DNA of 64,000 nt from an uncultured Lachnospiraceae bacterium (lineage in GTDB: Bacteria; Bacillota; Clostridia; Lachnospirales; Lachnospiraceae): NCBI GenBank assembly GCA_947564735.1, contig CANOEC010000004.1, positions 124,001 through 188,000 of the forward strand, given 5' to 3'. The position numbers were made by a program, and so were the translations under genes. Shown one piece after another: positions 3,668 through 56,202 of the stretch (positions are counted from its first letter, which is position 1; each line of letters begins with the position of its first letter). The notes under the pieces are model-generated. The model had not been told where the DNA came from and ran no database searches. It was given only the letters and a program-made list of their open reading frames with translations.

Positions 3668-3780
3668 CATCAATCACCCCGCCCAAGTGTCTGTCCGCAT
3701 CTGCCGCCTTCGTCCATACATGCCCGACAAACAAGTGGTCTGCCACGGAAAACAGTATCTTGCTGTGGATTTGGTGCTTT

Positions 3781-3820
3781 TCCACCACTTTCATCCACTT
3801 CATACCACTTTCCACCACTT
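3781..3820 (-). promoter_or_regulatory. MraZ-box array, four 10-bp direct repeats
   Basis: On the minus strand the six bases AAGTGG recur four times at exactly 10-bp spacing (3815-3820, 3805-3810, 3795-3800, 3785-3790). The four intervening bases vary. MraZ of other bacteria binds short G-rich direct repeats spaced one helical turn apart upstream of mraZ, so this is very probably the autoregulatory operator. It lies just downstream of the predicted -10 element. Confidence 0.85.
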
Positions 3821-3828
3821 TTAACCTA

Positions 3829-3857
3829 ATTTTATACTATTGATGGATAGATTGCAA
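3829..3857 (-). promoter_or_regulatory. Predicted mraZ/dcw promoter
   Basis: Reading the minus strand, TTGCAA at 3852-3857 and TAAAAT at 3829-3834 are separated by 17 bases, a sigma-A-like arrangement. A TATAAA overlaps the -10 in a second register. Transcription would begin at the edge of the MraZ boxes, so bound MraZ could block initiation or early elongation. Confidence 0.55.
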
Positions 3858-3894
3858 GGATAAATTGGGCTTTTTGGAAAATCTTTTGCAGGAC

Positions 3895-3940
3895 AAAAAA
3901 AGAACTCTCAAACAGCTTTTCTGCTGTTCAAAAGTTCTTT
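3895..3940 (-). terminator. Intrinsic terminator after lgt
   Basis: The minus strand forms an AAAGAAC...GTTCTTT outer stem around an AACAGC/GCTGTT inner stem, followed by a run of seven T residues. It lies directly after the lgt stop and separates the ychF-lgt transcript from the dcw promoter. Confidence 0.85.
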
Positions 3941-3957
3941 CTGACTGCTCTATCATT

Positions 3958-4872
3958 TTATTGTTGATTTGTCTCTTTTACCGACATCGTCGCGGCAGGA
4001 GTACCACTTCCCCGCTTCATACGCATCCGGATAAACAAATCTGCTATAAGCGCCAACACAAAAAGCACAATCGCCAACACCTGTGACACCGCTATCGTCG
4101 TATGCGGAATAAACAATGTATCCGTGCGGATTCCTTCAATCCATGCTCTGCCAAGTCCGTAGCCGCCCAGATACAGAAGCCACATCTCCCCTTCAAATTT
4201 CTTATGCTGTCTGTATCCTATCATGACAAAAAGCAGTATCAGATTCCACAGACTCTCATAAAGAAAAGTTGGGTGTACCTGTATATAGTTTGTTCCTTCT
4301 ACAATATGCTGCGCCACATTTTCCGAAATGTCAATGCTCCTCACCGACTCAATCGGCAGTCTCATGGCAAGCAGATTATCCGTATACTCGCCGAACACTT
4401 CCCTGTTCGTGAAATTACCCCAGCGTCCGATTACCTGTCCAAGCACAAGCCCCGGAACACAGATATCCGCAATCTGCAAAAAACTTTGTTTCTTCACCTT
4501 ACAATATACCCACAGCGTCGTAAACGCCGCGATGACTGCGCCGTAAATCGCCAGCCCGCCGTTTCGCAGATTGAAGATATGCAGCAGGTTATCTTTGTAC
4601 ATATCCCATTGGAATACCACATAATAGATTCTTGCGCCTATAATAGAAAAAATAATCGCGTAGATGGCAAAATCCCATATAATTTCCGAATCAAGATTTT
4701 CCTTTTTCGCGATATACGACGCCATCAGCACACCGCACAATACGCCGATTCCAATAATCACACCGTAAAGTGCAATCTGAAAACCAAAGACACTGAAGCT
4801 TTTGGGCACATCATTCAAATAAATTCCCAGATGTGGAAACGATATATCCGTTACATTCATGATATCCTGCAC
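3958..4872 (-). CDS. lgt: Prolipoprotein diacylglyceryl transferase
   Basis: Lgt transfers diacylglycerol from phosphatidylglycerol to the lipobox cysteine of prelipoproteins in the membrane. The 304-residue protein has about seven hydrophobic segments and the family signature GRWGNFTNREVFG, with the conserved Arg and Asn of the active region. A GTG start is chosen because AAGGAG lies eight bases upstream; an ATG four codons later has no such site. It is 12 bases after ychF and shares its promoter. Likely clients in this window include the solute-binding protein at 45,253 and the lipoprotein at 57,977. Confidence 0.95.
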   Translation of the reverse strand: MQDIMNVTDISFPHLGIYLNDVPKSFSVFGFQIALYGVIIGIGVLCGVLMASYIAKKENLDSEIIWDFAIYAIIFSIIGARIYYVVFQWDMYKDNLLHIFNLRNGGLAIYGAVIAAFTTLWVYCKVKKQSFLQIADICVPGLVLGQVIGRWGNFTNREVFGEYTDNLLAMRLPIESVRSIDISENVAQHIVEGTNYIQVHPTFLYESLWNLILLFVMIGYRQHKKFEGEMWLLYLGGYGLGRAWIEGIRTDTLFIPHTTIAVSQVLAIVLFVLALIADLFIRMRMKRGSGTPAATMSVKETNQQ

Positions 4873-4884
4873 GACTACTACTCC

Positions 4885-5982
4885 TTATACGTTAAACCTG
4901 AACAAAATCACATCGCCGTCCTGCACGACATAATCCTTGCCTTCCATACCGACCAGTCCCTTTTCCCGCGCTGCGGCAAGCGAACCCTGTTCCAGTAAAT
5001 CCTTGTAATTGACTACCTCTGCCTTGATAAAACCGCGCTCGAAATCGGTATGTATCTTACCCGCCGCCTGCGGCGCTTTCGTACCGATTTTAATTGTCCA
5101 CGCCCTCGTCTCATCCTCTCCTGCAGTCAGAAAACTCATCAGCCCCAAAATATGATAGCTTGCCTTTATCAGTTTCTGCAGACCGGACTCTTTCAATCCA
5201 AGGTCTTCTAAAAACATTGCGGTTTCTTCTTCGTCCAGCTCCGCAATCTCCTGCTCAATCTGTGCACAGATAACAAATACTTCACTGTCGTTTGCCGCTG
5301 CAAATTCTTTCACCTTTGCCACGCCCTCGTTAGAGGCACCGTCGTCCGCCAGATCGTCCTCCGCCACATTCGCCGCAAAGATAACCGGCTTGTATGTCAG
5401 CAGATTGTAAGAGGCAAGAAGTGCCGCCTCGTCCTCATCCTCCGTCTCAAAACCTTTCGCCAGTTTTCCTTCTTCCAGATGCGCCTTTATACGCTCAAGA
5501 AGTGCATATTCTTTTGCCACCGTCTTATCCATCTTTGCCACTTTGGCAGTCTTGGCAATTCTCCGCTCCAGAATCTCGATATCAGAAAAAATAAGTTCCA
5601 GATTGATTGTCTCAATATCCCGAAGCGGATCGATCGAGCCGTCCACATGCACGATATTGCTGTCCTCAAAGCATCTTACCACATGTACGACCGCATCCAC
5701 CTCCCGTATATTGCTGAGGAACTGGTTCCCCAGACCTTCTCCTTTGGACGCGCCCTTCACAAGTCCCGCAATATCCACAAATTCAATCGTCGCAGGCGTT
5801 ACCTTCTTGGAATGGTACATATCGCCCAGCAGCTTCAGCCGTTCGTCGGGCACCGTCACGATACCGATGTTCGGGTCTATGGTACAGAACGGGTAATTCG
5901 CCGATTCCGCTCCTGCCTTTGTCAAAGAATTAAAAAGGGTGCTTTTCCCCACGTTCGGAAGCCCCAGTATGCCTAGTTTCAT
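4885..5982 (-). CDS. ychF: Redox-regulated ATPase YchF (Obg family)
   Basis: YchF is a ribosome-associated member of the Obg GTPase family that prefers ATP. The P-loop GLPNVGKSTLFNSL is at the N-terminus, followed by DIAGLVKGAS, the switch II DxxG element, and a C-terminal TGS-like domain after an alpha-helical coiled insert. Length 365 residues is the family norm. AAAGGAG lies eight bases before the ATG. A promoter at 6,082-6,110 drives it, with lgt downstream. Confidence 0.95.
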   Translation of the reverse strand: MKLGILGLPNVGKSTLFNSLTKAGAESANYPFCTIDPNIGIVTVPDERLKLLGDMYHSKKVTPATIEFVDIAGLVKGASKGEGLGNQFLSNIREVDAVVHVVRCFEDSNIVHVDGSIDPLRDIETINLELIFSDIEILERRIAKTAKVAKMDKTVAKEYALLERIKAHLEEGKLAKGFETEDEDEAALLASYNLLTYKPVIFAANVAEDDLADDGASNEGVAKVKEFAAANDSEVFVICAQIEQEIAELDEEETAMFLEDLGLKESGLQKLIKASYHILGLMSFLTAGEDETRAWTIKIGTKAPQAAGKIHTDFERGFIKAEVVNYKDLLEQGSLAAAREKGLVGMEGKDYVVQDGDVILFRFNV

Positions 5983-53314: not shown

Positions 53315-54760
53315 CTATAAAGCTCTGATTAACCGAATATAAAAAGCAACTGTCTTATACATCGTCTCCACCGGAACCCTTTCGTTATTACCGTGAATCA
53401 TACCTCGCTCTTCTTTTGACAACGCCATCGCTGAGAATTTATAAATCCGGTCGGTAATCCTGCTATAATGTCTGGAATCAGAACATGCCATCATCAGATA
53501 CGGAGACACAATCGCATCCTGCCATGTGGTATGAATCGCCTTCTTGAGCGTCTGCCACTCCTCGCACTGCGTGTCTGAATAACCGGAAGCCTCCATTGCA
53601 TGTTGAATCTTAATTTCAATCTTATCGTTACCAATCACCTTTCGCAGATATTCCACTGCATGCTCCGGCGTATCATCTCCGAGAAGCCTTAGGTTCATCC
53701 CCACAGACGCTGCCGGCGGAAGCACATTGAATGCTTTGCTTCCTTCCATCTTAGTCACTGCACAGGTGGTACGCATCATGGCATTTAACTCACCGCCTGA
53801 CCTTTTACAGACCGCATTTAACAAGGGCAGAAAACACCACAGGTTGGCGAAAATCATCTTCATGCCAAAACCAGAGTGCCTTCCGAGCGTGTCAAACATT
53901 TCTCTGACCGGTTTGGTAAACTGCGCCTTGAAAGGATGTTTCTCTATTTTCACCACAGCCTCGGAAAGCTGTCCTAATATCGTGTGCGGCGGCGGTGTGG
54001 ACGCATGACCGCCCTCGCTCTTCATGACAAGCTCCACGTTCATCCCGACTTTTTCACCGATGCCAACCACGGCGCACGGTTTATTCACTCCGGGGAATAC
54101 TTTCTCCACCACGGCGCCGCCTTCATCCAGTACAAACGCCGGCTTAATTTTCTTTTCCTCCAGATAGGAAACAATCGCCGGACAGCTTCTGCCCTCCACT
54201 TCCTCGTCTCCGGAAAAGGACAGATACAAATCGTGCTCCGGACAGAAGCCTTCCGACAAAAGCTGCTCCATCGCCTCCATCACACCGCATAGCGTGCCCT
54301 TCGTGTCAAGGGTACCTCTTCCCCATATGCAGCCCTCTTCCACAAGCCCTTCAAATGCCGGCTTGTCCCAGTCCTTTTCCTCCACCGGAACCACATCGTA
54401 ATGTGACATCAATACTCTGGGACTATCGCTGCGCTTTCCCTTCATATGGTATAACAGCCCGGTATCACCTATCTTTTCCAAGGTAAACGCCTGATGTACT
54501 TTCGGAAACCGTTCTTTCAAAAGCGCTTGAAATTTCTCAAACTCCTTCCAGTCAATCAGTGATTTATCTTGATACGAGACTGTCCTGCACCGAATCATGT
54601 CGGACATGTCCTTCACAATCTTCTCCTCATTCAAACTGACTTTCTCTTCCACCATCTCCGGTTCCGGATAGGGTGAAAAGAGCGCCGTTCTGATTAAAAT
54701 CACCGCGATAAACGCTGCGATAAGCAATAAGATAATCGTCAAAATTGTTACCCCCGTCAT
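53315..54760 (-). CDS. M20-family metallopeptidase with N-terminal membrane anchor
   Basis: Metallopeptidase of 481 residues with one N-terminal hydrophobic segment (about 5-25) and an M20 catalytic domain. Metal-binding and catalytic motifs visible are [23 protein letters not shown], and SGDEEVEG. Its domain order and membrane anchor resemble PM20D1-like carboxypeptidases and N-acyl amino acid hydrolases. Its ribosome binding site and ATG lie inside one arm of the 78-bp inverted repeat, so expression may be affected. Two membrane proteins upstream are in the same operon. Confidence 0.85.
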
Positions 54761-54937
54761 TTTTCTGCTCCTTTTCTATATACCTGCCAGCAATTCCCGT
54801 CAAATCCAGTTCCTCTTATACATAATCCTTGCCGCCGCCAGAGAAATCAACGCGCCGACCGGCAAGGATTATGTATAAGAGGAACTGGATTTGACGGGAA
54901 TTGCTGGCAGGTATATAGAAAAGGAGCAGAAAAATGA
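54757..54937. repeat. Perfect 78-bp inverted repeat with 25-bp spacer
   Basis: Bases 54757-54834 and 54860-54937 are exact reverse complements with no mismatch; the 25 bases between are unpaired. The left arm holds the ATG, ribosome site (AAAGGAG) and upstream region of the M20 gene, plus the end of an apparent older reading frame of the permease. The right arm is a reversed copy located within the permease reading frame. The single transcript of this operon would fold into a 78-bp stem. Confidence 0.97.
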
Positions 54938-55466
54938 GCGGCGTCAGAGACAGTTTCCAGTTCTTGCTGATATAAACCACGGCAAGCCCGCCGAACAGCG
55001 CCGGAAGGATATTGTCAAACGCCGGCTTTAAGACCGGAGAATTGAGTACCGGTGTGAGGACTGACAAAAGCAGCACACCGACCGCGATGACCAAAGTGGT
55101 GACAATGGAACTGGTCGCAATCGCCAGCGTGGAGATTACCTCCCCCTCTTCCGAGCCCGGCTTCACCTGCGCATTTTCCATAGCATTTAACGCCGCCGGC
55201 GCCTTAATGTTCGTAATGTTGCCCGTGACGAACGCCAGATACGAACCGCCCGTTCCAAGCATGGGACCGTAAGTAAACACCTCGATTACCGCAACCGTCC
55301 AGAAGATAGGCGCCACACCGAGCAACCCTTTTAACACCGCCGTCCCCTCCGGCCACGCGCCATAGTACAGACAGATGACAACCGGCACCGACAACAGCAT
55401 AAATAACGCCGTCAAAATCCAGATGCGTCCGTAAAAATGTGATTTATCATTATATGTTGTATTCAT
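54816..55466 (-). CDS. Membrane transporter subunit, C-terminus altered by inverted repeat
   Basis: Protein of 216 residues with about six membrane segments; no family recognised with confidence. It pairs with the DUF5058-like protein directly upstream (13 bases). The last 45 residues come from the right arm of the inverted repeat, the spacer and eight bases of the left arm, ending in GGGKDYV, and look foreign. In another frame of the same DNA, GTC at 54859 starts VGALISLAAARIMYKRNWI followed by TGA at 54800-54802. That is a plausible native transporter ending, so the gene is probably broken or rearranged near its 3' end. Confidence 0.75.
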   Translation of the reverse strand: MNTTYNDKSHFYGRIWILTALFMLLSVPVVICLYYGAWPEGTAVLKGLLGVAPIFWTVAVIEVFTYGPMLGTGGSYLAFVTGNITNIKAPAALNAMENAQVKPGSEEGEVISTLAIATSSIVTTLVIAVGVLLLSVLTPVLNSPVLKPAFDNILPALFGGLAVVYISKNWKLSLTPLIFLLLFYIPASNSRQIQFLLYIILAGRRVDFSGGGKDYV

Positions 55467-55479
55467 AAAAACTCCTTTC

Positions 55480-56202
55480 TTAACCGATGAGCGGCGTAAT
55501 GATTACAGCAAACACCATCGAAAGTATCATGCTGATTGACAGCGCATATGTCTCCAGCCACTTCATTTTACACACTTTAATCAAAATACCGCAGACTCCC
55601 ATAATCAATGCGGAAAATAAGAGGACAAATATCGGAATCCATCCCGCCAGTCCGTTTCTGACGTCGGTAAAGACCATACCAAGAAATGCCGATATCATTC
55701 CGAGAAACAGCGAGGTCATGAACAAATCGCCCCATTTACCATCCTTATTCTTAATCTTCATGATTCCGCCCTGTATCTTCTTAAGAAACAGCGGAATCAT
55801 AATCATGCCCGGAATAATTCCCAGCGTCATCACCCATGCGATCGCTGTGTATGCCTTCGCATCCGTTATCGTATCCGCCAGCGACAACCCCAGCGCCGTC
55901 GCCGTAGACGTTGCCGCCGGAAGCTCATATGTAATGGCGCCCACAACGCTTAAGCGAATCCACGGAAGCGGAATGCCCAGAAACTTCGACAACGTTAAGA
56001 TTCCAAGCAAGATGGAAACCGCCGGCGCAATCGTAAAGACCGCCGTAGATAAAATCGTCTTCTTAAGCTGCGCCTTGTCCATCCCGATGGCTGCACCGTG
56101 TCTGTATGCGCGCATCAAGAAAAAGACCGACTGCGCCACCACAAAGGCAATGACGATTGCCGCTAAAATAAACAAAAAACTGCTGTTTGGATCAAAACTC
56201 AT
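55480..56202 (-). CDS. DUF5058-like membrane protein
   Basis: Protein of 240 residues with about six hydrophobic segments. It resembles the DUF5058 family of membrane proteins, which are encoded next to a smaller membrane partner and peptidase or amidohydrolase genes. A Pro-containing LPWIRLSVVGAITYELPAATS stretch is a prominent feature. The family is uncharacterised; import or export of an amide-type substrate for the M20 enzyme is a guess. AGGAGG lies five bases before the ATG. Confidence 0.75.
   Translation of the reverse strand: MSFDPNSSFLFILAAIVIAFVVAQSVFFLMRAYRHGAAIGMDKAQLKKTILSTAVFTIAPAVSILLGILTLSKFLGIPLPWIRLSVVGAITYELPAATSTATALGLSLADTITDAKAYTAIAWVMTLGIIPGMIMIPLFLKKIQGGIMKIKNKDGKWGDLFMTSLFLGMISAFLGMVFTDVRNGLAGWIPIFVLLFSALIMGVCGILIKVCKMKWLETYALSISMILSMVFAVIITPLIG

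What the first reader, a model, noticed from the sequence alone, without database searches (positions are those of the whole stretch)
54757..54937. Perfect 78-bp inverted repeat captures the start signal of the M20 gene and rewrites the end of the upstream permease
Seen directly: two 78-base arms without a mismatch and a 25-base spacer. The left arm contains the ribosome site and ATG of the M20 peptidase. The right arm lies in the permease frame and on the plus strand gives a copy of the same start signal, followed by the short frame MSGVRDSFQFLLI. In another frame the DNA still encodes a plausible native permease ending (VGALISLAAARIMYKRNWI, stop at 54800-54802), so the right arm looks like a later fold-back copy that replaced coding sequence. 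The mRNA hairpin would hide the M20 ribosome site. It could be a real template-switch event, a regulatory switch, or an amplification/assembly artefact.
Basis: partly seen in the sequence, partly recalled or inferred. Interest (0 to 1): 0.8.

Follow-up and report, generated by a model that had tools for sequence, protein, structure and literature searches.

The report
Inverted repeat, probably an assembly artefact
A perfect 78-base mirror copy really is in this contig and overwrites the end of a transporter-like gene, but the same kind of scar turns up repeatedly in this genome assembly and in none of the relatives sampled, so it is most likely a sequencing and assembly error and not a genetic switch.

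Summary
The repeat is exact: 78 of 78 bases, 25-base spacer. Five of five close congeners have an ordinary permease end and no repeat here, so the left arm is native and the right arm is an inverted copy that replaced about 68 bases with 78.

The site is not unique. In 1,992,000 readable bases of this genome (44%) I found seven such repeats: arms 78-120, spacers 12-58, all perfect; none had arms of 26-77. 741,392 bases of congeners and 489,357 bases of related loci had none. In all seven one arm is native and the other overwrites it, with microhomology at the junctions.

Contig ends overlap by at most 55 bases, as in a de Bruijn assembly with k=55. All arms exceed k+1, and false and native paths differ by under 10%, the limit rnaSPAdes uses to collapse bulges. 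Fold-back chimeric reads are a known library artefact.

I favour artefact (0.68) over a recent burst of snap-back template switching in the living lineage (0.25). Nothing supports a regulatory switch. Raw reads would decide.

The parts
54757..54834 (-). Left arm: native source. End of the permease-like gene, intergenic DNA, ribosome site and ATG of the M20 gene
   Evidence: 78 of 78 complementary to the right arm. Aligns in place in five congeners: whole arm in L003, most of it in L007, the permease-end part only in L004, L005 and L006
54835..54859 (-). 25-base spacer, native permease-like coding sequence
   Evidence: Aligned with native sequence in all five congeners
54860..54937 (-). Right arm: inverted copy that replaces about 68 native bases and shifts the frame
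   Evidence: No in-place match in any of five congeners; microhomology TCATTTTT at the outer and TGCCG at the inner junction
54816..55466 (-). Permease-like ORF as assembled (216 aa), with an altered C-terminal end
   Evidence: no Pfam match
53315..54760 (-). M20 peptidase gene (481 aa) whose start lies in the left arm
   Evidence: PF01546, E 1.8e-28
54934..54975 (+). Short frame MSGVRDSFQFLLI; also present in congener G001 without the repeat

Best explanation
The inverted copy is most likely not in the organism's chromosome. During library preparation, single strands snapped back at short natural inverted pairs and were filled in, giving chimeric fold-back reads. Two such pairs matter here: a 5-base pair flanking the 25-base spacer, and an 8-base pair spanning about 170 bases. 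In a de Bruijn assembly with k=55 the two false junctions link through genuine k-mers of the source arm, because the arm is longer than k+1. They form a path of nearly the same length as the true one, and where true coverage was low the assembler kept the false path. Shown: the repeat, the native state in relatives, seven such sites in this assembly, junction microhomology, end overlaps of 55, and the length constraint. Inferred: the fold-back reads, the low coverage and the bulge collapse.
For: Seven perfect repeats in 1,992,000 readable bases of this genome, none in 741,392 bases of eight congener genomes or in 489,357 bases of 80 related loci. No arm of 26-77 bases and no decayed version of the same kind. 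Contig ends share exact overlaps of at most 55 bases, five pairs being exactly 55 and flush. 7 of 7 arms are at least k+1=56, and 7 of 7 path-length differences are 3.0-9.4%; rnaSPAdes collapses bulges with under 10% length difference, and metaSPAdes collapses larger bulges than isolate mode. Library chimeras at natural inverted repeats are described in PMC3946424 and PMC10908179. 5 of 5 congeners are native.
Against: No read data were available. No arm falls in 56-77, which k=55 alone would allow. The congener set alone gives P=0.074 for seeing none, and the assemblers and k of the controls are unknown. Star et al. found terminal palindromes in libraries of contemporary DNA to be generally 3 bases or less, and in one unamplified control library same-strand read pairs were only 0.02%. 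No convincing fold-back scar was seen at contig ends. The native stretch is not found anywhere else in the assembly. That genome-mode SPAdes shares the 10% rule is recalled.
Confidence: 0.68

Rival explanations
1. A real, very recent mutation. A nascent strand folded back at the 5-base pair TGCCG/CGGCA, copied 78 bases of itself, melted, re-paired with its template at the 8-base homology AAAAATGA and went on, losing about 60-68 native bases. At least seven such events struck this genome in a burst.
For: Microhomology at both junctions over the seven sites (matches 40.8 outer and 35.4 inner, null means 14.2 and 13.6, never reached in 20,000 draws) is what two polymerase switches would leave. 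The outcome matches the published four-point template switch with intrastrand fold-back (passages of PMC8794818). The outer homologies, mostly 4-8 bases against relatives, are short for an assembler overlap (recalled).
Against: No arms of 26-77 and no decayed copies, equal copied and replaced lengths, none in the relatives sampled, SbcD intact. The largest pattern in PMC8794818 was 59 bases and failed their quality control.
Confidence: 0.25
2. Both switches happened in one molecule during whole-genome amplification or PCR before sequencing, and that molecule dominated the library.
For: Inverted chimeras rise 10-20 fold in amplified samples (passages of PMC3842359). Same junction evidence.
Against: Needs amplification from very few molecules, which fits poorly with 99.49% completeness. 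Does not explain the missing 26-77 class or the equal lengths.
Confidence: 0.05
3. A functional hairpin or switch that hides the M20 ribosome site.
For: The RNA would fold with z about -21 and pair the M20 start region.
Against: Absent from 5 of 5 close congeners and from all 22 relatives read out of 80 fetched. The same architecture lies in six other places of this genome. No recombinase was looked for.
Confidence: 0.02

Closest known systems
Palindromic / fold-back chimeric read artefacts of Illumina libraries (Star et al. 2014, PMC3946424, passages read; Chen et al. 2024, PMC10908179, abstract and one section read)
   Same: Inverted copies of nearby sequence primed at short natural inverted repeats
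   Different: Described in single reads, not as a path kept in an assembled contig; arms here are 78-120 bases, and palindromes in Star et al. averaged 11 bases in historic DNA
Bulge collapsing in SPAdes-type assemblers (PMC6736328 and PMC8021871, passages read)
   Same: One of two paths of similar length is kept
   Different: Normally removes errors and strain variants; here it would have kept the false path. The assembler itself is not identified, only k=55
Template switch mutations with four switch points (Monttinen and Loytynoja 2022, PMC8794818, passages read)
   Same: A reverse-complement copy next to its source, with a switch out and a return
   Different: Longer (78-120 bases), seven in one genome and no short ones
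Quasipalindrome mutations of E. coli (PMC7202029, search listing only)
   Same: A nascent strand folds on itself and is templated by the opposite arm
   Different: Those start from an existing imperfect palindrome; relatives here show only stems of a few bases

Membership tests
Library fold-back plus de Bruijn bulge artefact | Assembly built on a de Bruijn graph, with arms of at least k+1 | tested here: met
   Maximum exact end overlap 55 among 59 end pieces, two of which read N; 7 of 7 arms are 78 or more
Library fold-back plus de Bruijn bulge artefact | False and native paths of similar length | tested here: met
   3.0-9.4% difference in 7 of 7, with homology lengths read by hand
Library fold-back plus de Bruijn bulge artefact | Single-junction chimeric reads and low native coverage at the locus | not testable with these tools
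   No reads held
Library fold-back plus de Bruijn bulge artefact | Confined to one assembly | tested here: met
   0 in 741,392 and 489,357 control bases; P=0.013 together, 0.074 for the congeners alone
In vivo template switch mutation | Inverted copy in place of native sequence, with microhomology at both switch points | tested here: met
   at single sites the inner match is as low as 0-2 bases (L228), and L125 is unclear because its one relative is distant
In vivo template switch mutation | Present in cellular DNA of the lineage | not testable with these tools
   No second strain or reads held; two junction patterns found nothing in viral contigs, a poor place to look
In vivo template switch mutation | A range of lengths and ages | tested here: not met
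   No arms of 26-77, no decayed versions
Regulatory hairpin or invertible switch | Conserved at the locus in relatives | tested here: not met
   0 of 5 close congeners and 0 of 22 relatives read

The most novel reading that the evidence does not exclude
This gut Lachnospiraceae-like lineage has undergone a recent burst of long snap-back template switching (about 16 per genome if the sampled rate holds), each event writing a perfect 78-120 base inverted copy over native sequence: a bacterial mutator that makes palindromes from nothing.
Probability: 0.22. Interest if true: 0.75.

Novelty: not a real feature. Interest (0 to 1): 0.25.

Why it matters
If it is an artefact, it garbles genes at seven places in the sampled 44% of this genome, among them a trpD and a carB that would be misread as damaged genes, and it suggests a simple screen: perfect inverted repeats longer than k+1 with a short spacer, seen in one assembly only. 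If it is real, it would be an exceptional burst of a mutation type seldom caught in the act in bacteria.

Tried and rejected
Chance: a 78-base perfect repeat is far beyond chance, and no other with arms of 24 or more is reported in the window.

An old or functional element: rejected on the relatives.

The right arm as native permease sequence: considered because tblastn ran past residue 185 in some relatives. Rejected on translation; relatives read FMIVLFLMVPSLAGSVGVLVPVGALISL or close variants there.

The native permease end elsewhere in this genome: a congener query matched only the two flanks of the replaced stretch, besides one 16-base match at E 0.79.

Loss of SbcCD as cause of a burst: SbcD is present and open in this genome. 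SbcC was not searched.

k=77 as the reason for the 78-base lower bound: my idea, refuted by the end overlaps, which give 55. The empty range 56-77 is not explained by k.

Scaffold gap filling: the sampled stretches of this genome hold no N apart from withheld blocks, and the junction overlaps are shorter than the minimum overlaps that I recall for such tools.

Fold-back scars at contig ends: two short inverted repeats (16 and 15 bases) near 59 ends, neither convincing.

A published account of this exact artefact in assemblies: none stood out in the listings of three searches, of which 20, 15 and 15 rows were shown.

Full report
OBSERVATION. The two arms (54757-54834 and 54860-54937) are exact reverse complements over 78 bases with a 25-base spacer. 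No other inverted repeat with arms of 24 or more is reported in the window. As RNA, 54730-54960 folds at -159.7 kcal/mol, z -21. The upstream gene has no Pfam match; its neighbour at 55480-56202 is DUF5058, and the M20 gene matches PF01546.

DIRECTION. The permease-like protein found 110 places, of which 80 loci were kept. I read the gene's end in 22 of those 80, and all 22 have an uninterrupted end such as SLTPLIFMIVLFLMVPSLAGSVGVLVPVGALISLAAARIMYKKNWI. In the genus, 7 of 78 genomes including this one match the gene by DNA. Five are close: L003 (G013), L004 (G001), L005 (G057), L006 (G071, identified by contig number) and L007 (G043). All five show the native end. I did not examine the end in the sixth, G030. 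The left arm aligns in place: wholly in L003, mostly in L007, and over the permease-end part only in L004, L005 and L006, whose intergenic DNA differs or, for L004, is cut by a contig end. The right arm has no in-place match in any of the five. So the right arm is an inverted copy that replaced about 68 bases with 78, and the assembled frame leaves the native one and stops at 54816.

NOT UNIQUE. I sampled this genome in 100 stretches of 20 kb plus the window: 2,064,000 bases, of which 1,992,000 are readable and 72,000 withheld. Seven long perfect repeats were found, arm/spacer: window 78/25; L105 83/58; L125 110/33; L136 88/38; L208 92/33; L215 80/12; L228 120/37. By reading the ORFs, from memory of such proteins and without a family search, I take these as a BlaI-like gene running into an M56-like gene (L105), an AraC-like regulator (L125), a histidine kinase (L136), trpD (L208) and an unnamed membrane protein (L228). 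L215 is carB by family match. Controls: 741,392 readable bases from eight congener genomes (400,000 from G013; the rest from G043, G057, G001, G023, G018, G062 and G077) and 489,357 bases of the 80 related loci. With loops of 8-300, their longest arms were 24 and 18; with loops under 8 there were arms of 38 (L011) and 42 (L077). At 3.5 per Mb the chance of none in both control sets is 0.013, in the congeners alone 0.074. In this genome the arm lengths run 14-25, then nothing from 26 to 77, then the seven. A search allowing mismatches found no decayed version; its one other match was a 61-base, 84% repeat with a 187-base spacer in L134.

ANATOMY. In each of the seven, one arm matches relatives in place and the other does not; five, one, one, three, two, five and two relatives were used, in the order above. 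Copied/replaced lengths are 78/68, 83/72, 110/101, 88/82, 92/88, 80/92 and 120/106. The junctions show microhomology to the relatives' native sequence: here TCATTTTT outside and TGCCG inside. It is weak at some sites (L228 inside, L125 outside). Over the seven, matches in the eight junction positions sum to 40.8 outside and 35.4 inside, against null means of 14.2 and 13.6, never reached in 20,000 draws. Beyond the exact outer boundary 21 of 84 positions match, as by chance, 6 of 12 of them at this site. The carB frame stays open (1,075 aa), but the stretch that encodes GGSGGG in G013 is replaced; a second CarB lies on contig 6. In trpD the stretch for NAGAALYIGG seen in G013 is lost.

WHAT MADE THEM. 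Among 59 contig-end pieces (two of which read N), the longest exact shared end is 55 bases; five pairs are exactly 55 and flush at both ends. That is the mark of a de Bruijn assembly with k=55. Each junction alone is what one snap-back at a short natural inverted pair would give; such chimeric reads are described in passages of PMC3946424 and in the abstract and one section of PMC10908179. If an arm is at least k+1, no (k+1)-mer spans both junctions, so two independent kinds of false read can be linked through genuine k-mers of the source; 7 of 7 arms qualify. The false path then competes with the native one as a bulge. Path lengths differ by 3.0-9.4% in 7 of 7, using homology lengths that I read by hand. 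rnaSPAdes collapses bulges whose edges differ by under 10% in length (passage), and metaSPAdes collapses larger bulges than isolate SPAdes (passage). That genome mode has the same 10% limit is recalled. If the length difference were free within +/-100, seven values within +/-14 would have a probability near 1e-6; this model is mine.

AGAINST THE ARTEFACT. There are no reads. k=55 would allow arms of 56-77 and none is seen. Star et al. report terminal palindromes of generally 3 bases or less in libraries from contemporary DNA, and one unamplified library had only 0.02% same-strand pairs, so this library would have to be unusually rich in fold-backs. The assemblers behind the controls are unknown. 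The native stretch was not found anywhere else in this assembly.

THE LIVING ALTERNATIVE. The same anatomy fits a four-point template switch with intrastrand fold-back (passages of PMC8794818). A nascent plus strand would fold at CGGCA/TGCCG, copy itself and return to its template at AAAAATGA. I cannot exclude it. Against it stand the empty 26-77 range, the absence of decayed copies, the near-equal lengths, the intact SbcD and the need for a burst in this one genome.

FUNCTION. A switch on the M20 ribosome site is contradicted by the relatives and by the same architecture at unrelated places. If the assembly were literally true, the permease would lose its conserved C-terminal segment and the M20 ribosome site would sit in a very stable hairpin; both are predictions.

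VERDICT. The string is real in the contig, and its reading as a copy over native sequence is right. Its most likely cause is technical (0.68), with a recent in vivo burst as the serious rival (0.25).

Noticed in passing
L105:13020-13243, L125:466-718, L136:684-897, L208:2113-2329, L215:11168-11339, L228:13158-13434 (same genome): Six further perfect inverted repeats of the same anatomy (arms 80-120, spacers 12-58), found.
   Followed up: yes
L086:1-19 and the last 19 bases of L089 (contigs C89 and C200 of congener G001): In G001 the contig breaks between the same two genes, both contig ends carrying ATACAATAATATACTATAT.
   Followed up: no
L228:13842-13900: A dispersed element of about 55 bases: 32 of the 37 matches listed in this genome for the query fall in this stretch, several at 93-96% identity.
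   Followed up: no
L107:16951-17178, L121:4410-4640, L162:1473-1702: Three copies of an element with short inverted ends starting GGCAGATTGCACAAA (21-22 bases) about 187 bases apart; L134:10366-10674 has the same spacing with longer imperfect arms.
   Followed up: no
L105:13495-13500: The M56-like gene lacks about 190 bases against congener G021 (matches 3726-4499 and 4694-4994 for adjoining query parts), so this locus looks damaged apart from the repeat.
   Followed up: no
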